Below are positions 1-37,663 of a stretch of 38,406 nucleotides of DNA, piece after piece (positions within the stretch are counted from its first letter, which is position 1; each line of letters starts with the position of its first letter). The position numbers and the translations under genes are program-made. Below the pieces are notes generated by a model. The model made no database searches and was not told where the DNA came from. It was given only the letters and a program-made list of their open reading frames with translations. Origin of the DNA: Candidatus Cloacimonadota bacterium (GTDB lineage Bacteria > Cloacimonadota > Cloacimonadia > Cloacimonadales > PWNZ01); contig PWNZ01000029.1 in the NCBI GenBank assembly GCA_003564135.1, positions 1 through 38,406 on the forward strand, written 5' to 3'.

Positions 1-42
1 ATGGCCTTCACAGCTGACTCTCATCTCTTTCGTTAATATTAT

Positions 43-117
43 AATCATCCCCTCGGGTGTCTTCATTTTTCATTCTTCGTTCTTCATTCTCGCAGTCATG
101 GACGTTTACTATGTTTA
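43..117 (-). repeat. Mosaic intergenic repeat, copy 1
   Basis: Read on the minus strand, this copy contains the module resembling GACACCCAAGGGAATGATT (18 of 21 positions match 29693-29713), a GAA-rich spacer of the AATGAAGAACGAAGAATG type, and the module whose plus-strand form is GTCATGGACGTTTACTATG (95-117). The same modules in the same order occur at 29620-29713 (plus) and 37547-37627 (minus). The order and spacing argue for copies of one element rather than chance. Confidence 0.65.
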
Positions 118-131
118 AAATCGATTTACCA

Positions 132-155: not shown

Positions 156-530
156 AATTGATCGCGTTCCTCGTCGCTTCGGTCCATCCGTTTGGTAAAC
201 CGGCTTTTTAACCTGGGTAATCTTCTTTCTTGACCTGTGAAATCTTCTTTTCTATTAAACTGGTTAGCTGGCAAAGCGGGTAAAACAGAGCACAAATCTT
301 GCTGTTTAATAGTTGCTTCCAGCGATTCAACCTCCTAGTTTATGTCAAAATCAAACCTTCCTTTGAATTATCTTAAAATAACTTTCCTTATTCTTCTGGT
401 TACCTCTAATCGCCTTACAGAGAAAACTTTTGTTAATGTCCTCTTTCTTTGACAGAATACTCGCTGGCAATTATTCACCGCTTAATATCGTGTCAATCAA
501 TTTCTCGATTTATTATTCATCTATAAGTTC

Positions 531-865: not shown

Positions 866-2824
866 ATGTGTGACATCGTTAATATCAAGGGGAACATAGG
901 CATAGCCATCGTAGTTGCTTTGGTAGCTATTTTTTCGGGCATTTCTTTAGCTGCCATTGCGTTTCGGGATACAGTTGCGTTTTCTAACCAGTTAGATGGC
1001 ATTCAACAATTTCATTATATTCGTTCGGAGGTCGGAAGAGGGCGTTTAGCTGCAAGTCATCTGGAAACAATGGACAACCCGGCTCGAGACAACCTGCTAC
1101 CAATAAAAAGACGGAGAGTTGAATTTAACCGTTTTCGAACTGTATATAGGGCAAGAACACGGGTCTCAATCAGAGATGAAAGGGGTGAAAAAAGTTTTTT
1201 AATCAGAACACTTCTGGCAGGAGTCAGAGGAAGAGATGACACACAAGCGCCGGAGTTGCAGTCCCAATCAAAGAGATATGCAGAAAACAGAATTAGATCC
1301 CTACAATCACTGGCAGTGTTTCACTACTTTAGCGATATCGACGAGGAGCGAAACGCTGTACCAGGTAATATTCGCTTTTACGCGGGTGATATCGTACACG
1401 GCAGAGTTCATAGCAATACAGATATCTGGATACGCCAAAATAGTTGGCCAAGATTTTATGATTTAGTTTCAACCTCCGGTCAAATCAGGGTTTATCCGGG
1501 TGGTGGCACAGTATATCCTAAAGAACATATTTTTAGGGGCGGCTTAATAGAAAACTATCAAAGAATAGTTTTTGACCCCACAGCCAACGCTGTTCGCAGA
1601 AATGCCAGTACACCTTTTGGTACTCATGAAAATGACGAGAAGATAGCTTTTGTCACGATTGAGGGGACGGCGTTCAGGTCGAAAATAGGCGAGATCAGCA
1701 TCAATTCACCTTCAAGCGAAAGTGACTGGATAGAAGAAGTAAACCAGTTTACTGTTTACGACAGCTATCCACCATACGGGCCGGTCGGTAATGAGATCGG
1801 AGTCAATAGAATAGCAATGCCTGACACTGTCTGGCGTGAAGGGCCCACAGGCACGGCCAGCGGTGGTTCTAATTGGGTGCCGATGGAGTTATGGATCAGT
1901 GGCCAAGTTACCGGCTCTCAAACTTGGGCAAGCTCACACGAAATTTTTATTAAAGATGATATCACCTATACAAACACACAGCCGGGGCTTAGGCCTGATG
2001 GATTAAACGAGTCGGGAGAAACAACACTTCCCGTTAATCCGACTGACTATTTCGGGCTTATTTCCGAAGAATCGATCTGGATTCAGTATGGCCACAACTG
2101 TCCTGAAGATTCAATCAGAAGAAGGCCTAACACTAACAGTATTTATATGTATGGAGCTTATTGTGCGGTAGGACAAGGAACTGAGACCTGGGAGGACGGT
2201 ATAGTCTCCTTTCAATATCAGTTCCCTAAAGGTTCAACGCCTGACCAATACTGGGACAGCGGTCCGATGAGAGTCGACAGAAACGCTCGTCAAGGAAGTT
2301 CAACACCGGACCAGTACAGGGGAGACAGAAAATACACAAAAATCGATCTGCATCGGTTTCACTATCCGACAACCCTGCAGCAGCCCTGGCCTTTAGGACT
2401 TGATTATCCCTGGTATAATCCTTTATGGCCTGAGCCCGGTAATGTTTTCGGTGTACCCGCAATCCCGAATCCGGATAACCGTCCCAGAGTTGTCAGACTA
2501 AGGGGGAATATCTGGTTGTTCGGTTCAATAGCTCAGAGAAGAAGAGGGTATGTAAGACGAAGCGGCACTCCCAGCTTTGATACAGGATTGTGGGATATAG
2601 ATAATTCAATCGACCCCGACAGCCCACCCAGATATGGAGCACCCCCGCCTAATTTGGGGCCTGCCGGCTATGACAAACGATATCACTTTGATAAACGCTT
2701 TGAAAGACATTCTCCGCCTGACTTTCCTTTGATCATCTTTGAAGGTTATGATTCTGACGAATTGAGAGATTTAGGATTTCTTACTCTTCGCTGGGAATTT
2801 AAAAGTCCACCATCTAATTTTTAA
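866..2824 (+). CDS. Exported PilX/DUF4900-like prepilin protein, copy A
   Basis: A 652-residue protein, first of three tandem paralogues. A short basic leader (to K8-G9) precedes a hydrophobic helix (about residues 12-33, GIAIVVALVAIFSGISLAA), as in PilX-type minor pilins where cleavage follows a glycine. The remainder is predicted extracellular and Tyr/Pro/Trp rich. The segments GDIVHGRVHSNTDI, IFIKDDITYTNT and YFGLISEESIWIQ fit the DUF4900 pattern (hydrophobic-G-x-V-H-S-N, then D-I-T-Y, then G-L-I-S/A) as I remember it. AGGAGGTG eight bases before the ATG fixes the start. Compared with copy C it has an extra segment of about 20 residues in which STPDQY occurs twice. Adhesion or surface display is inferred from the type IV pilin-like N-terminus; no function is known to me. 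Confidence 0.8.
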   Translation: MCDIVNIKGNIGIAIVVALVAIFSGISLAAIAFRDTVAFSNQLDGIQQFHYIRSEVGRGRLAASHLETMDNPARDNLLPIKRRRVEFNRFRTVYRARTRVSIRDERGEKSFLIRTLLAGVRGRDDTQAPELQSQSKRYAENRIRSLQSLAVFHYFSDIDEERNAVPGNIRFYAGDIVHGRVHSNTDIWIRQNSWPRFYDLVSTSGQIRVYPGGGTVYPKEHIFRGGLIENYQRIVFDPTANAVRRNASTPFGTHENDEKIAFVTIEGTAFRSKIGEISINSPSSESDWIEEVNQFTVYDSYPPYGPVGNEIGVNRIAMPDTVWREGPTGTASGGSNWVPMELWISGQVTGSQTWASSHEIFIKDDITYTNTQPGLRPDGLNESGETTLPVNPTDYFGLISEESIWIQYGHNCPEDSIRRRPNTNSIYMYGAYCAVGQGTETWEDGIVSFQYQFPKGSTPDQYWDSGPMRVDRNARQGSSTPDQYRGDRKYTKIDLHRFHYPTTLQQPWPLGLDYPWYNPLWPEPGNVFGVPAIPNPDNRPRVVRLRGNIWLFGSIAQRRRGYVRRSGTPSFDTGLWDIDNSIDPDSPPRYGAPPPNLGPAGYDKRYHFDKRFERHSPPDFPLIIFEGYDSDELRDLGFLTLRWEFKSPPSNF

Positions 2825-2931
2825 AAAGCTTTTTACCCACTAATAAAATAAACCGAATAAACCTTGACAACTTAATGAGCTTTTCCCAAACTATAAATGA
2901 CAATGATATGAAGATATGGGAGGTGCATGTT

Positions 2932-4824
2932 ATGCATTGGTTCGCAAACCATCGAGGTAATATCTCAATAGCTTTGGTACTCGTGTTGGTAGCTATAATG
3001 TCGGGTATATCGTTAGCTGCCGTCGCTTTTAGAGATACCGTTGCCTATGGCCATCAGTTAAAAGGGATGCAGCAATTTCACTTTATCCGTTCGGAAGTAG
3101 GAAGAGGACGCTTAGCAGCCGGATATCTGGCAGTAAGAGAAAGCCCTGCCGTTGAGACTTTATTGCCCATAAAAAACCGTATTGTTAAATTTAGCAGCCA
3201 TCTTTATAATTACCGGGCAAAGACTCGCATTTCCAGCCAAGACGTCAAAGGAGAAAAAAAGATTCTCATTAGAACGCTTCTATCTGCAATAAGAGGCGGA
3301 GATAAAGACCGAGTTTCCGGTTCAGGTTCTACGGTTCAAAGATTTGCCGAAAACAGGATACGTTTACTTCCGTCTCTGGCCATCTATCATTCTTTTACCG
3401 ACAAGCATAAAGGCATAGACGACGTTCCAGGTAATATCAGATTTTCTCAAGATGATATAATTCATGGCCGAGTTCACAGTAACACTGATTAATGGATACG
3501 AAAAAACAGCTGGCCAACATTTCATGGATTAGTCTCAGTTGCCGGAGATGTAAAAGTTTATCCTGATGGCGGTACTACCTATCCCAAAGATCAGATATTT
3601 CTCGGAGGTCTGATTGAGAACTCCGGTCGAATAGTATTTGACTCTAAGGCAAAAGAGGTCAGAAATAATGGTATTCAACCTTTTTTTGATAAACAATACG
3701 ATTACAGGATAGCATTCGTTACGATTGAGGGAACATCTTTCCAATCGAAAATCGGCAAAGTTAAGCATCCGGATGAAAATGAATGGGTAGAAGGTTATAA
3801 CCGGTTCATAATTTATAACACTTATCCTCCTTATGGCCCGGTAGGTGATTCGGTCGGGGTGAATCGAATCATTATGCCCGACACAGTATGGTCTGAAGGG
3901 CCTTCTTCTTCGGCTAAAGGGAGATCTGTCTGGGTGCCGATGGAACTGTGGATTAGCGGTGAAATCACCGGTTCACAAACCTGGGCAAGCTCGCATGATG
4001 TATATATTAAAGATGACATAACTTATTCCCACACAAAGCCCGGCCTCAGTCCCGATGGATTAGACAGTTCCGGCCAGTTGACGCAGCCAATTAACCAGAG
4101 TGACTATTTTGGACTTATCTCCGAAGAATCCATCTTGATTCAGTATGGTCATTTCTGCCCGGTGGATTCAGTCAGGAAACGTCCTAATACTGAGGATATT
4201 TATTTATATGGAGCTTACTGTGCTTTAGGAGAGAGCGACAATTACTGGGAAGATGGAGTGTTCTCTTATCAATATCAGTTCCCAAAAGGCTCTACACCAC
4301 CTCAATACTCGACAGGAGAATGGTTCAGACACATCGACTTGCATCGTTTTAATTATCCTACAACAGCTTCTTGGCCATGGCCTCTGGGGCTAGACTATCC
4401 CTGGTATAATCCCTTATGGCCGGAACCCGGCGAGGTTTATGAATTTCCAGATGTTCAGTTTACTCCAAATGCTCACAATGCCCCTATGATAATAAAACTT
4501 CGTGGTGACATTTGGCTTTATGGTTCTATAGCTCAGAGACGTGTCGGCTACGTCAGAAGAAGTGGTAATCTCGATTTTGATACCGGATTATGGGATATCG
4601 ATAACACTATAAATCCCATCAACCCACCCAGATATGGTGCGCCGGCACCGGCTATTGGCGCAACGGGATATGGAAAACGTTACCGTTTCGATAGACGCTT
4701 TGAAAGAAATGCACCGCCCGATTATCCACCCGCTGCCTTTGAAGAGTATGATCTTGCTGAACTAATGGACTTGGGTTACCTGACAACCAGCTGGATATTC
4801 AAAAACCCACCTTCTAATTTCTGA
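2932..4824 (+). pseudogene. Prepilin-like paralogue, copy B, interrupted by in-frame TAA
   Basis: This second paralogue aligns with copies A and C over its whole length, but a TAA at 3490-3492 replaces the isoleucine codon of the conserved N-T-D-I-W-I segment (residue 187). The frame then stays open for 444 codons and keeps all family motifs, including DVYIKDDITYSHT and YFGLISEESILIQ. The ATG at 2932 follows GGGAGGTG; an earlier in-frame codon at 2875 has no such site. The overlapping ATG in TAATG is out of frame, so it cannot restart the protein. A 186-residue N-terminal piece could be made. The stop differs from an ATC/ATA/ATT isoleucine codon at two or more bases, which makes a single-base sequencing error unlikely. 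It is either a young pseudogene, a silent donor copy, or a read-through gene. Confidence 0.8.
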
Positions 4825-4865
4825 ACGACCCACCCATCTCTTACTAATAAAAAAACAAATAGAGC

Positions 4866-4894
4866 TTGACAACTTATTGACCCTTTACTATATA
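4866..4894 (+). promoter_or_regulatory. Promoter of prepilin-like copy C
   Basis: TTGACA (4866-4871) and TATATA (4889-4894) are separated by exactly 17 bases, 42 bases before the start of copy C. Copy B has the same leader (TTGACAACTTA at 2864), but its TATAAA (2892-2897) lies 22 bases away. Confidence 0.6.
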
Positions 4895-4935
4895 TAAAAA
4901 CAACAATGTTGTGAGTAAGATAGGAGGTGCATACT

Positions 4936-6828
4936 ATGTATGGTACTATTGACATCCGTGGTAATATCTCAATGGCTTTGGTAGTCGTGCTGGTAGCTAT
5001 GATGTCCGGCATTTCGCTTGCTGCCGTCGCTTTTAGAGATACCGTTGCGTTTAGAAACCAGATGGATGGAATTCAGGAATTCCATTATATTCGTTCGGAG
5101 GTTGGCAGAGGACGCTTAGCAGCAGGCCATTTAGAAGGTATGGAAAACCCTGCTACCGATAATTTGCTGCCTATCAGGATAAGAAATGTAGAGTTTAGCA
5201 GCCATCGTACGGTTTACCGGGCAAAAACCCGTCTTTCTATCTTGGATGACCGGGGAGAAAAGGGTTTTTTAATCAGAACTCTTCTATCGGCAGTAAGAGG
5301 TGGAGACAATACCTTGGCTCCGGAACTGCAGTCTCAGGCCCAAAGATACGCAGAGAATAGAATACGATCACTGCAATCTCTGGCAATTTTCCATTATTTC
5401 AGTGATACAGACGAAGAAAGGGATGGTGTGCCGGGGAATATCAGGTTCTTTTCCGGTGATATCGTTTATGGCAGGGTTCATAGCAATACCGATATCTGGA
5501 TACTGCAGAACAGTTGGCCGACATTTCACGGATTAGTAAGTACAGCCGGCAAAATACGAGTTCACCCCGGAGGTGGAACTACCTACCCCAAAGATCAAAT
5601 ATTTCGTGGTGGATTGATGGAGAACTACCGGCGAATTCTTTTTGAGCCCAATGCAAGAGCAGTAAGAAATAATGGAATAACCCCTTTCGGCAATACTGAG
5701 CATGATGACCGGATAATTTTTGTTACGATTCAAGGGTCAACTTTTGAAGCTTTTGAGGGAGTAATCGAAATCAAAGAACCTAAGGATGAAAGTGACTGGA
5801 TAGAAGATGTAAATCAGTTCACTATATATAGCACATATCCTCCTTACGACCCAGTCTGTGATTCGATCGGCGTCAATAGAATCCCTATGCCCGATACTAC
5901 CTGGACCGAACTTCGAGGCGGAGCAGTTGCTAATCAGTCGGTATGGGTACCTATGGAACTATGGATCAGCGGAGAAGTTACCGGCCCTCAAACATGGGCT
6001 AGCTCTCACGACATCTATATCAAAGATGATATCACTTATACAAACACTCAACCGGGGCTGAGGCCCGACGGAATAGATGAGTCCGGCGAACAAACACTGC
6101 CAGTCAACACAAGAGATTACTTTGGACTAATTTCTGAAGAATCAATCTGGATACAATATGGTCATTTATGCCCGGACGAATTAGTAAGAAAAAAGCCTAA
6201 CACGCAAAGCATCTATATGTATGGGGCATACTGTGCCGTCGGACAAGGCACTGAAACATGGGAAGACGGAATATTCTCCTTTCAGTATCAATTCCCTAAA
6301 GGGTCGACACCGCCCCAGTACTGGATCGGCGAAAGATTTGTCTATATTGATCTTCACCGCTTTCATTACCCGACATCATTACAAGAGCCATGGCCGCTGG
6401 GCTTAGATTATCCCTGGTATAATCCACTGTGGCCTGAACCCGGCGCTGTTTACGGTGTTCCTGAGATACCTAATCCACATAATGCTCCGGAAATAGTCAA
6501 GCTGCGTGGTGATATTTGGTTGTACGGTTCAATAGCTCAAAGAAGAAGAGGATATGTCAGAAGAAGCGGAACTGCTGATTTTGATACCGGACTATGGGAT
6601 ATCGAAAATGAGATTGAGCCAAACACACCGCCCAGATATGGAGCACCCACACCATCTATCGGTGCAACCGGATATAATAAACGATACCATTTCGACACCC
6701 GTTTCGAAAGACGTTCGCCGCCGGATTTCCCCTTAGTTATCTTCGAAGGTTATGATACTGATGAGCTAATGGACTTAGGGTATCTGACTCTTCGCTGGGA
6801 ATTCAAGAACCCGCCGTCATCATTTTGA
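4936..6828 (+). CDS. Exported PilX/DUF4900-like prepilin protein, copy C
   Basis: The third paralogue, 630 residues. It has the same leader-plus-helix N-terminus (MYGTIDIRGN then a hydrophobic stretch to about residue 30), the same GDIVYGRVHSNTDIW, DIYIKDDITYTNT and YFGLISEESIWIQ motifs, and the same C-terminal FDTGLWDIEN and TLRWEFKNPPS segments. It is closer to A than to B. I chose ATG 4936 because AGGAGGTG ends seven bases before it; the in-frame GTG at 4927 sits inside that ribosome binding site. It has its own 17-bp-spaced promoter and a strong terminator 26 bases after the stop, so it is the end of the array. Function is unknown; a cell-surface pilus-associated protein is the best guess. 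Confidence 0.8.
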   Translation: MYGTIDIRGNISMALVVVLVAMMSGISLAAVAFRDTVAFRNQMDGIQEFHYIRSEVGRGRLAAGHLEGMENPATDNLLPIRIRNVEFSSHRTVYRAKTRLSILDDRGEKGFLIRTLLSAVRGGDNTLAPELQSQAQRYAENRIRSLQSLAIFHYFSDTDEERDGVPGNIRFFSGDIVYGRVHSNTDIWILQNSWPTFHGLVSTAGKIRVHPGGGTTYPKDQIFRGGLMENYRRILFEPNARAVRNNGITPFGNTEHDDRIIFVTIQGSTFEAFEGVIEIKEPKDESDWIEDVNQFTIYSTYPPYDPVCDSIGVNRIPMPDTTWTELRGGAVANQSVWVPMELWISGEVTGPQTWASSHDIYIKDDITYTNTQPGLRPDGIDESGEQTLPVNTRDYFGLISEESIWIQYGHLCPDELVRKKPNTQSIYMYGAYCAVGQGTETWEDGIFSFQYQFPKGSTPPQYWIGERFVYIDLHRFHYPTSLQEPWPLGLDYPWYNPLWPEPGAVYGVPEIPNPHNAPEIVKLRGDIWLYGSIAQRRRGYVRRSGTADFDTGLWDIENEIEPNTPPRYGAPTPSIGATGYNKRYHFDTRFERRSPPDFPLVIFEGYDTDELMDLGYLTLRWEFKNPPSSF

Positions 6829-7178: not shown

Positions 7179-7386
7179 TACATTATCAACAATATTCGTG
7201 CTTTTTTACTTAACTGGGTCCCTGCTCTTGTAATCTGTGCTTGACTCAAAAACCTATAACAGGGTTCTTGGTTTGATTATGACGCTTGGGGCTTTTGATT
7301 GCTGTCAGAACCCCTTAAACCAATCGGACAATGCGGTGTTCTGCCTTGATAGGATAGAACCTGTGGAATCTCCGTAACCTGTTTCC

Positions 7387-7414
7387 CCCGTGTAACCTTT
7401 TTTGTTACACTGGG
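7387..7414. repeat. GTGTAAC hairpin, mosaic-repeat type
   Basis: CCCGTGTAAC, a CTTTTTT loop and GTTACACTGGG form a stem of 7 plus 3 base pairs with one bulged T. Similar hairpins with a T-rich loop and a CCAGTG/CACTGG base occur at 29546-29574 and 37633-37663, both next to the mosaic repeat. Confidence 0.55.
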
Positions 7415-7553
7415 CGGGAGACATTTAATCATAGTAACGCTCATGAGAGTGAAGAGTAATGTATGATTTACAATGTATGATGTATAATCGAAAAATGAAG
7501 TAAGCCAAGAAAATGATTAAAAGGCTAAAGCCGACGTACCGGCCGGATGAATC

Positions 7554-7577
7554 CAGCGTTCCGGAATCACTGGTAAC
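7554..7577 (+). repeat. 24-bp exact repeat shared with 132-155
   Basis: Exact reverse complement of 132-155, located 36 bases before the PP-loop gene. GGCTAAAGCC (7523-7532), whose extended form recurs at 31473-31485, lies just upstream. Confidence 0.7.
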
Positions 7578-7612
7578 TATTTTAATCATAAGAACCAATA
7601 AATAAGGAAGAT

Positions 7613-9415: not shown

Positions 9416-9550
9416 AGAGTAGGGTTAGGGTTAGTGCATAGTCTCACACTAAACTCGCTTTTAATTATTCATTTCCTTTCTCCTTCTCTCAACGCTAAAC
9501 TCTAAACGCTCAACCATTATATATCAGTGGCTATCCATGAATCTTTCCTG

Positions 9551-9630
9551 GTTACAAAGGTTACAAAAAGTTACAAACTATGTAACCGTGTAACTCATTG
9601 ACTATCAATAGGATAAGGGCTATGGTTACA
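9551..9630. repeat. GTTACA/TGTAAC hexamer array
   Basis: GTTACA occurs at 9551, 9560 and 9570, then TGTAAC at 9581 and 9589, and GTTACA again at 9625. GTTACA-AACTA-TGTAAC (9570-9586) is an exact inverted repeat. The 8-11 base spacing is close to one helical turn. The hexamer also forms the stem of the hairpin at 7387-7414. Confidence 0.5.
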
Positions 9631-9648: not shown

Positions 9649-9870
9649 AAATTTTTTATTTTTTTTTCAATGGCACGAAGTTCATATTGAATAGTCATAT
9701 TCCCACCCTGATTAAACTCGTGTATAGGCGTATTTTTTGTGCTGTTTATTATAGAAACGGTATAAACTCTCTGCTCTCTGCCCTCAGCCCTAAACTCTCT
9801 GCTCTCAGCCCTTAATTATATATCTTATTTTTAGACTCCCCTGCCCTGAGTGTTTTTCCTTTTAATAGAT

Positions 9871-28992: not shown

Positions 28993-29484
28993 ATGGCCAT
29001 AATCGCAGCCGTGGCTGACAACCGAGTAATTGGATTTAGGAACTCGATGCCCTGGAAGATCCCCGAAGACCTCGGCTATTTTAAAAGCTTAACTGTCGAC
29101 AACATCGTTTTGATAGGCAGAAAAACCTATGAATCAATCGGCAGGCCTCTTCCTGACAGGATAAATATCGTGTTCTCTAACCGGCAAAGGTTCAAACAAG
29201 CCTACAACGTCTCTTCAGCCGAAGAGTTATCCCGGCTAATTGCCGACAATAAAGACAGCTGGCAGGGAAAGAGAGTATTCAATATCGGCGGTTCTTCTCT
29301 GTTTCACGGTTTCCTACCCTATACCGACACTATCTATCTAACCCGTATATATCGGGATTTCAGCGGTGATACTTATTTCCCGGAGATTGACTTTGATGAT
29401 TGGAAGATTGTTTCCCGCCGGCCGGGAAATAATCAGTCACAACACTCTTTCAGATACGAATTTATCGTCTATAAAAGGAGATAG
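28993..29484 (+). CDS. folA: Dihydrofolate reductase
   Basis: A 163-residue enzyme reducing dihydrofolate to tetrahydrofolate with NADPH. Characteristic segments: MAIIAAVADNRVIG at the start, MPWKIPEDLGYFKSLT (with the substrate-binding acidic residue in the E-D-L helix), IGRKTYESIGRPLPDR, and the glycine turn FNIGGSSLFHGFLP. I chose ATG 28993 because it gives the usual length and N-terminus; ATG 28951, overlapping the preceding stop, would add 14 unconserved residues, and neither has a strong ribosome binding site. It follows the sulfite-oxidase-fold gene closely and may depend on its transcript. Confidence 0.93.
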   Translation: MAIIAAVADNRVIGFRNSMPWKIPEDLGYFKSLTVDNIVLIGRKTYESIGRPLPDRINIVFSNRQRFKQAYNVSSAEELSRLIADNKDSWQGKRVFNIGGSSLFHGFLPYTDTIYLTRIYRDFSGDTYFPEIDFDDWKIVSRRPGNNQSQHSFRYEFIVYKRR

Positions 29485-29498
29485 TAACGATTATGGCT

Positions 29499-29519
29499 AT
29501 GACACCCAAGGGAATGATT
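29499..29519 (+). repeat. Mosaic repeat module, first copy in this gap
   Basis: ATGACACCCAAGGGAATGAT plus one T is identical to 29693-29713 and resembles the reverse complement of 43-63. Confidence 0.75.
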
Positions 29520-29545
29520 GAATAGCAGTGTTCAGGCCTTTTTAA

Positions 29546-29574
29546 CCTGTGAAGTCGTTTTTTTATTTCACTGG
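29546..29574. repeat. T-rich-loop hairpin, mosaic-repeat type
   Basis: CCTGTGAA and TTTCACTGG form an imperfect stem around a T-rich loop. It is the counterpart of the hairpins at 7387-7414 and 37633-37663, and a degraded version is seen near 231-262. Confidence 0.5.
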
Positions 29575-29619
29575 GAGATGCTATGAACACTAGATGAGAT
29601 TGTTACAAAGAACGATTTC

Positions 29620-29713
29620 AAACATATTAAACGTCTATGACTTCGAGAATGAAAAATGAAGAACCAAGAACAAAGAACCAAGAACGAATACGATGACACC
29701 CAAGGGAATGATT
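29620..29713 (+). repeat. Mosaic intergenic repeat, most complete copy
   Basis: Modules in order: AACATATTAAACGTCTATGA, CTTCGAGAATGAAAAATGAA, an AAGAACCAAGAAC tract, then GAATACGATGACACCCAAGG. The inverse order and orientation recur at 37547-37627, and a diverged version at 43-117. Confidence 0.75.
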
Positions 29714-29822
29714 AAAATGCTCTGTACGGACAGGACACCGCGCCTGTCCCTATCTGAACCTAATCTGCAGAATCTGAGAAATCTGTGGGAGACCTTTTAA
29801 ACATATTAAACGGAGTTGCAAA

Positions 29823-31297: not shown

Positions 31298-31600
31298 ACG
31301 CTATTGATTCCAAAATATTCGCACATAATTAGCTGCAGAAACCGATTAGGCATAAATTAAACTATCTTAAATATAAGTCACTTTGATCAGGAAAAACCCT
31401 CATCAAACCTGAATCCATATAACAAAAAAGTCAAAGGACAGCAAAGTTTTATCATTGGTGAGAGTAGTAGTCGGCTAAAGCCGACTACTACTCAAAAGAA
31501 TGCTATACTACTGATAAGAGAGTTGTGTTGGCTAATTACTTCAGCAGTAAAACTTTCCGGGATTACGGTTGTTTAGCTTAAGTAAAGGAACCTGATGTCA
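31298..31600. other. Convergent intergenic region with long perfect hairpin
   Basis: About 300 bases between convergent genes. Apart from the inverted repeat at 31462-31493, I see no gene, promoter or other repeat in it. Confidence 0.6.
31462..31493. repeat. Perfect 32-base inverted repeat
   Basis: GAGTAGTAGTCGGCT (31462-31476) and AGCCGACTACTACTC (31479-31493) are exact reverse complements separated by AA. The central GGCTAAAGCCGAC also occurs at 7523-7535. It may be a terminator for one of the convergent genes, although it lacks a T-run, or a mobile palindromic element. Confidence 0.75.
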
Positions 31601-37546: not shown

Positions 37547-37627
37547 GCCTTGGGTATCATCATATTCGTTCTTGGTTCTTGGTTGTTGGTTCTTGGTTGA
37601 GGATGTCATGGACGTTTATTATGTTTA
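37547..37627 (-). repeat. Mosaic intergenic repeat, copy 3
   Basis: On the plus strand it reads CCTTGGGTATCATCATATTC, GTTCTTGGTTCTTGG and then GTCATGGACGTTTATTATG, the inverse of 29620-29713. It begins about seven bases after the IS21 end. Confidence 0.7.
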
Positions 37628-37632
37628 AAGTT

Positions 37633-37663
37633 CTCCAGTGCAGCCTTTTTTGTTACACTGGGG
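37633..37663. repeat. CCAGTG hairpin, mosaic-repeat type
   Basis: CTCCAGTG and CACTGGGG pair around CAGCCTTTTTTGTTA. It is very similar to 7387-7414 (shared CCTTTTTTGTTACACTGGG) and follows repeat copy 3 directly. Confidence 0.6.

What the first reader, a model, noticed from the sequence alone, without database searches (positions are those of the whole stretch)
29499..29713. Mosaic intergenic repeat with reusable modules
Modules (GACACCCAAGGGAATGATT; AAGAACCAAGAACGAA; the CGTCTATGAC/GTCATGGACG block; a hairpin with T-rich loop) recur in order at 29620-29713, 37547-37627 and 43-117, with single modules at 29499-29519, 7387-7414 and about 231-262. All lie between genes and in both orientations. 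This resembles REP/MITE-like families but no transposase signature is seen.
Basis: seen in the sequence. Interest (0 to 1): 0.6.

Follow-up and report, generated by a model that had tools for sequence, protein, structure and literature searches.

The report
Site-specific mobile repeats near gene starts
The repeated modules are copies of a small mobile DNA element, present more than a hundred times in this bacterium, that inserts at one short target site; in distant relatives that site is the start codon of genes, and there the element shares its ends with a probably RNA-guided transposon.

Summary
Module A1 (GACACCC-N6-ATGATTA) occurs 114 times (<=1 mismatch) and A2 (TTTAAACATA-NN-AAACGTCCATGAC) 53 times (<=2) in the 2.87 Mb host genome; reversed-pattern controls give 0. 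They alternate strictly, A2-v1-A1-v2, often in tandem (A2>A1 67, A1>A2 51, A1>A1 3, A2>A2 0). v1 and v2 come from a small dictionary. Flanks fix the ends...ATA|GTAAACGTCCATGAC-v1-A1-v2-TTTTAAACATA|GTAA..., so this is a site-specific insertion unit. The same words in the same order occur in Bacteroidota and in the host's own phylum. There the target is the start codon (TTTAAACAT|ATGAAA): in one Saprospiraceae MAG 26 of 30 arrays end at that motif, 16 of them on a long or contig-truncated ORF. In three Saprospiraceae genomes A2-v1-A1 also forms the left end of IS110-family elements, in two of which a gene's start codon follows the right end. Best reading: non-autonomous, MIRU-like elements of an IS110/IS1111-type, probably seekRNA-guided family. 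The IS110 link is shown only in relatives; none was found in the host MAG. REP/RAYT is rejected.

The parts
29484..29626 (+). Unit 1 of the main array: starts inside the DHFR stop codon (ATA|GTAACG), no v1, A1, v2 with hairpin H
   Evidence: Read (DHFR ORF ends at 29484); DHFR by Pfam; A1
29501..29520 (+). Module A1 (one mismatch at the last base)
29546..29574 (+). Hairpin module H (T-rich loop) inside v2 of unit 1
29617..29641 (+). Module A2 (junction of units 1 and 2; unit 2 starts at 29627)
29642..29694 (+). v1 slot: heptamer-type filler (AAGAACC/AATGAAA words)
29695..29714 (+). Module A1, exact
29796..29805 (+). Right end TTTAAACATA of unit 2; ATG of the ankyrin-repeat gene 18 nt further on
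42..61 (-). Module A1
62..94 (-). v1 slot, (AATGAAG)n type, 33 nt, the same string as in several other arrays
95..119 (-). Module A2
37605..37629 (-). Module A2; followed (leftwards) by heptamer v1 and a truncated A1 at about 37548-37570
37631..37662 (+). Hairpin module H
7434..7590 (+).
   Evidence: Read; A1-like
7387..7413 (+). Hairpin module H (RNA fold z -3.06 for 7383-7418)
208..262 (+). One or two hairpin modules H, degenerate

Best explanation
The repeats are units of a site-specific, non-autonomous mobile element. One unit is GTAAACGTCCATGAC-v1-GACACCCNNNNNNATGATTA-v2-TTTTAAACATA. It enters a site of the form ATA^GTAA between genes. Because the joined ends of two units rebuild that site (TTTAAACATA|GTAAAC), later units can insert next to it, giving tandem arrays. 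The internal fillers v1 and v2 are not conserved, and are swapped and expanded between fixed anchors. The family is widespread but patchy in Bacteroidota and in the host's phylum. Elsewhere the target is the start codon context AAACA(T/C/G)|ATGAAA, so the host gene regains a start codon after insertion, as in mycobacterial MIRUs. Mobility is most likely supplied in trans by IS110/IS1111-type elements, which carry the same left end and insert at the same site, guided by a seekRNA/bridge RNA that contains ATGAAA words. Shown: copies, grammar, ends, start-codon location in relatives, shared ends with IS110 genes in relatives. Inferred: movement itself, the RNA guiding, and that the host's copies were moved by such an IS.
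For: Copy number with zero control. Strict alternation. Sharp ends: 32 right flanks read G28 T25 A30 A29, then drop to background by the sixth base; 12 hand-picked left flanks read A12 T12 A11 (rows). Same words, order and spacing in Bacteroidota and in the host's phylum. G059: 26 of 30 arrays end in TTTAAACATATGAAA (<=2 mismatches); from that ATG 13 have an ORF of >=100 codons and 3 run off the contig; offset exactly 44 nt in 9 of 20 arrays with a co-oriented downstream gene. IS110 genes with A2-v1-A1 as left end: G058, G154, G097; in L247 and L252 the right end is AAACAT|ATGAAA of the next gene. L252 lies in G154, which shows 0 A1 copies by the pattern, so the left end seems to belong to the IS rather than to a host repeat (the IS's own A1 is missed by that pattern too). 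In L247, L252 and L248 the non-coding region after the transposase holds two ATGAAA words whose preceding bases follow the two junctions; homologue L254 has no ATGAAA words there and no A1/A2. Published precedent: mini-IS carrying only IS ends are moved in trans by transposase plus seekRNA (PMC11187229, passages).
Against: No IS110 gene (PF02371, PF01548) in the host assembly; the 19 IS110 loci of its order relatives show no A1-A2 pair. G059 and G109, with hundreds and tens of units, have no PF02371 gene either. In the host A2 has GT where relatives have the TG of ATG, so its target differs. No empty site or movement was observed. A2-v1-A1 of the window folds no better than shuffles (z +1.42). 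The ATGAAA guide match rests on three related elements, and the other halves of the guides were not found. The closest plasmid homologue has its long non-coding end upstream of the gene, unlike L247/L252. Downstream genes in the host are only mildly co-oriented (40 co, 23 anti, 24 none of 87).
Confidence: 0.55

Rival explanations
1. Same mobile unit, but moved by something other than IS110 (an unknown recombinase). IS110 elements in relatives merely share the start-codon target or picked up the left end.
For: No IS110 gene by PF02371 in the host, G059 or G109, nor by PF01548 in the host; core changed from ATG to AGT in the host.
Against: All three G097 IS copies carry the same left-end type, which is rare among the fetched short G097 units; the IS left end occurs in G154 without counted short units.
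Confidence: 0.25
2. Conserved cis-regulatory leaders (upstream ORFs or RNA elements controlling translation), multiplied by duplication.
For: In G059 the ORF from the A1 ATG ends between -4 and +20 nt of the next ATG in 54 of 65 units, 14 of them with the -4 ATGA overlap.
Against: Units sit before many unrelated genes; patchy presence in few genomes; 7-nt length ladders in v1; in the host the ATG is lost and orientation is mixed; G109 does not show the coupling (0 of 5).
Confidence: 0.1
3. Simple heptamer/minisatellite sequence spread by slippage and gene conversion, STRR-like, without transposition.
For: v1 often consists of 7-nt ladders (19, 26, 33, 40 nt).
Against: Anchors are complex 20-25 nt words, conserved across phyla, with sharp ends and a target consensus.
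Confidence: 0.07
4. REP/BIME family moved by a RAYT transposase.
For: Intergenic, many copies, palindromes in v2.
Against: PF01797 absent from the host, present in 5 of 14 controls; the unit ends are not palindromes and are directly oriented.
Confidence: 0.03

Closest known systems
MIRU (mycobacterial interspersed repetitive units)
   Same: Short, intergenic, mobile-looking units that insert at start codons so that an internal ORF may overlap the next start codon by ATGA (PMC12548453, passage seen).
   Different: No sequence relation tested; the host variant has lost the ATG; -4 overlap in only 14 of 65 G059 units; here the same ends are found on an autonomous IS110-type element.
IS110 / IS1111 insertion sequences with bridge RNA / seekRNA
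   Same: Relatives carry DEDD transposase genes between the same ends; site-specific, orientation-specific insertion; long non-coding end; no variable duplication (PMC11187229 and PMC11208160, passages).
   Different: Short units lack the gene and the RNA; start-codon targeting appears in no passage seen; in L247/L252 the non-coding end is downstream while the best plasmid homologue has it upstream.
BIME / REP / REPIN
   Same: Mosaic, intergenic, high copy.
   Different: No RAYT in the host; not palindromic; direct, alternating anchors.
Neisserial intergenic mosaic elements (dRS3/RS) and cyanobacterial STRR heptamers (both recalled)
   Same: Fixed separators with exchangeable fillers; heptamer repeats.
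   Different: No link to a transposase or start codon recalled for them; not compared by sequence.

Membership tests
IS110/IS1111-derived non-autonomous element | Ends shared with an autonomous IS110/IS1111 element | tested here: met
   In Saprospiraceae G058, G154, G097; left end in all, right end in L247 and L252
IS110/IS1111-derived non-autonomous element | Autonomous partner in the same genome | tested here: not met
   PF02371 and PF01548: 0 matches in the 91.6% complete host MAG
IS110/IS1111-derived non-autonomous element | Site-specific insertion without variable target duplication | tested here: met
   Target consensus ATA^GTAA in flanks; but no empty site seen
IS110/IS1111-derived non-autonomous element | Guide RNA matching target and ends | tested here: inconclusive
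   ATGAAA words track junctions in 3 elements; other guide halves not found; no Rfam hit
IS1111 group | Subterminal inverted repeats | tested here: inconclusive
   None seen by eye in L247/L252; no systematic test
MIRU | Insertion at start codon with ORF overlap ATGA | tested here: inconclusive
   Start-codon junction in 26 of 30 G059 arrays; -4 overlap in 14 of 65 units; not in the host
MITE (classical) | Terminal inverted repeats and target site duplication | tested here: not met
   Ends GTAAACGTCC... and ...TTTTAAACATA are not inverted repeats (by reading); flanks show a fixed consensus
REP/RAYT | RAYT (Y1_Tnp) gene | tested here: not met

The most novel reading that the evidence does not exclude
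A family of RNA-guided (seekRNA/bridge RNA) transposons in Bacteroidota and related phyla is programmed on translation start sites in general. Its non-autonomous derivatives occupy up to hundreds of gene starts per genome as harmless, start-codon-restoring tandem cassettes, with exchangeable cargo slots between two anchors conserved across phyla. In the host lineage the family was re-targeted from ATGAAA to ATA^GTAA.
Probability: 0.35. Interest if true: 0.8.

Novelty: new variant of a known kind. Interest (0 to 1): 0.6.

Why it matters
Start codons are the one short site that nearly every gene has. An RNA-guided transposon aimed at them would explain how MIRU-like repeats can colonise a genome without breaking genes, and would supply a natural system that inserts cassettes exactly at gene starts. 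It would also give small repeats of unknown origin an identifiable mobiliser, which can be tested directly.

Tried and rejected
RAYT/Y1 transposase: none in the host. Order relatives: 57 genomes show A1 only at control level. Viral contigs for the IS110 protein: none confirmed; phage records: 4, all under 60% identity. Rfam: only a tRNA in the window and no meaningful match on the IS loci. Remnants of the IS non-coding end in fetched host segments: not above control for two of three probes; the third (13-mer, 3 mismatches) gave 95 against 51 and is not interpretable. A1-like strings in L244/L245 look coding (by reading) and were dropped as chance. By the strict A1 pattern G058 and Algibacter G060 are not above control (46 vs 51, 17 vs 21); G058 stands out only with the relaxed A1 (24 vs 0), G060 was only read by eye. 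IS110 copies of G185 (37% identity) show other ends, with no start-codon junction. Nested hairpin H: real but not explained; its instances were selected for >=7 of 9 paired positions, which inflates pairing. Left flanks (12) were picked by eye: 11 of the 29 rows plus the window's DHFR junction; the other 18 rows are preceded by a further unit's tail or were unclear. Four right-end rows had no recognisable end and are outside its 43.

Literature searches returned no description of start-codon-targeting IS110 derivatives in the listings; this is not proof of absence. Papers: PMC11187229, PMC11208160, PMC12548453 and PMC3189936 were seen as passages only; all others as listings. The MIRU original paper is recalled, not read.

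Full report
Check. The window lies in contig C22 of a 2,871,949-base, 282-contig assembly, 91.59% complete. BLAST with 29590-29730 gave 66 places in it. A1 (GACACCC-N6-ATGATTA, <=1 mismatch) occurs 52 + 62 times, A2 (TTTAAACATA-NN-AAACGTCCATGAC, <=2) 21 + 32 times; the patterns read backwards occur 0 times. Of 87 arrays on the fetched segments 57 lie within 500 bp of a contig end, against 9.8% of the genome, so the assembly breaks on them and the true number is probably higher. One of 87 overlaps an ORF of >=150 codons.

Anatomy. On 87 fetched segments (242 kb) I counted 123 A1 (<=2 mismatches) and 85 A2 (<=5). Neighbours within 260 nt: A2>A1 67, A1>A2 51, A1>A1 3, A2>A2 0. v1 is one of a few fillers: (ACCAAGA)n, (AATGAAG)n in 7-nt steps, a TGTATAATTTACAATGTA type of about 50 nt, or 9-10 nt. 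v2 has palindromes (GCCGGCT-RAA-GCCGGC, GACTGAAAGTC), a CGGTGTTCTCGGTGGCTG type, or a CAGTGTTCAGACC type that often holds a further hairpin H with a T-rich loop.

Ends. Where an array ends, the sequence is TTTAAACATA followed in 32 cases by G28 T25 A30 A29 and then by unrelated bases; 12 hand-picked left ends are preceded by A12 T12 A11 (rows). In 12 of 43 right ends an ORF of >=80 codons starts 15-28 nt on; in the window this holds for the ankyrin-repeat gene (18 nt). At the left end of the main array the DHFR stop codon TAG lies in the junction.

Relatives. A scan of the genome-contig collection for GACACCCRARGGRATGATTAAA returned 7 loci, all in three Bacteroidota MAGs, the host left out. 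All seven show the same order, and the unit ends at AAACA-N-ATGAAA or a close variant at or near the start of the next gene. In Saprospiraceae G059, A1 occurs 278 times (<=2 mismatches, control 18). On 35 of its loci I found 30 arrays; 26 end in TTTAAACATATGAAA (<=2 mismatches); from that ATG 13 have an ORF of >=100 codons, 3 run off the contig and 10 are short. Downstream genes: 20 co-oriented, 6 opposed, 4 none; upstream 15, 14, 1. Among 199 genomes of that family 41 have any match of a relaxed A1, but only G059 (200), G058 (24), G097 (19) and G109 (18) stand out, all with 0 in the control. In 395 genomes of its phylum 5 match and only G059 is high. In the host's phylum, 124 genomes held, 4 match: the host 88 times, G015, G495 and G508 once or twice. 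Read by eye, these few copies have the same order; one G015 copy and both G508 copies end at an ATG. The host's ATAGTAAAC therefore looks like a derived form of ATATGAAAC (inference).

The IS110 link. In G097 three places show A2-v1-A1 directly before an IS110-type ORF (L229, L230, L231). The same holds for G058 L247, where the transposase is followed by about 200 nt of non-coding DNA and then TTTAAACAT|ATGAAAGAACAACTC, and for G154 L252, 72% identical, ending AATAAACAT|ATGAAAAATTTATC. A search with this protein matched 25 of 398 genomes at E <= 1e-20; of 30 loci fetched, A1 and A2 stand together in L251 (the same locus as L247), L252 and L276; L253 has A1 only, in the unit before the IS. Two other IS110 genes of G097 (L246, L250) have neither. 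In L247, L252 and L248 the downstream non-coding region contains ACATGAAAC or CAGATGAAA and then TATATGAAA, AATATGAAA or AAGATGAAA; the bases before ATG follow the left and right junctions of each element (AC, AT, AG). Homologue L254 has no ATGAAA there and no start-codon junction (read by eye). That resembles the seekRNA/bridge RNA arrangement of published IS1111/IS110 elements (PMC11187229, PMC11208160; passages seen). The match is by eye on three related elements and is marked as inference.

Negative results. The host assembly has no PF02371 and no PF01548 match; 13 of 58 genomes of that search have IS110 genes, one in the same family, but none of the 19 loci carries an A1-A2 pair. G059 and G109 have no PF02371 match either. 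The best plasmid homologue, 49% identical, carries its long non-coding end upstream. A2-v1-A1 of the window does not fold better than shuffles (z +1.42), 29501-29640 slightly (z -2.06), H at 7383-7418 clearly (z -3.06).

MIRU-like coupling. From the ATG in A1 the frame ends between -4 and +20 nt of the next junction ATG in 54 of 65 G059 units, 14 of them with the -4 overlap; 7 of 8 in G058 (0 to +20), 0 of 5 in G109, 5 of 10 in G097. A 2025 review states that MIRUs appear mobile, insert at start codons and couple by a -4 overlap (PMC12548453, passage). So the family works like MIRUs in some genomes; it is not shown to be a MIRU.

Verdict. The most likely explanation is a site-specific non-autonomous mobile element with exchangeable fillers, whose relatives share ends with IS110-type elements at start codons. 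The mobile-unit part I hold at about 0.85, the IS110/seekRNA part at about 0.5 for relatives and lower for the host.

Noticed in passing
window 7387-7413, 29546-29574, 37631-37662; 23 instances on fetched host segments: Hairpin H (CCCGTTAAG-TCGTCTTTTTTA-CTTAACTGG and variants) keeps pairing through changes on both sides and sits in the loop of several different outer palindromes (outer stem >=6 bp in 14 of 23, shuffled mean 4.8, max 11). It may be a second small element that enters hairpin loops.
   Followed up: partly
L247 (minus strand, about 1645 in reverse coordinates), L252 about 2413, L248 about 1651: The IS110 transposase frames of G058, G154 and G097 all seem to change frame at a run of eight or nine A near the C-terminal part: decay or programmed frameshift.
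   Followed up: no
window 866-6828: Tandem paralogous ORFs at about 2 kb spacing, DNA identity mostly 64-80% over 300-base stretches (ORFs); the first has no Pfam match.
   Followed up: no
window 9486-9514, 9551-9577, 9763-9812: Further short-word repeats (CTCTAAACGCTAAA, GGTTACAAA, TAAACTCTCTGCTCTC) between two convergent genes, unrelated to A1/A2.
   Followed up: no
window 31450-31505: 27-nt inverted repeat with 2-nt spacer (TAGTCGGCT..AGCCGACTA) between a deaminase gene and the convergent gene.
   Followed up: no
L244, L245 (G119, G094): An A1-like string lies inside what reads as a coding frame (...SGTHKGMIMDYL...) in two Saprospiraceae-family genomes; taken as chance.
   Followed up: no
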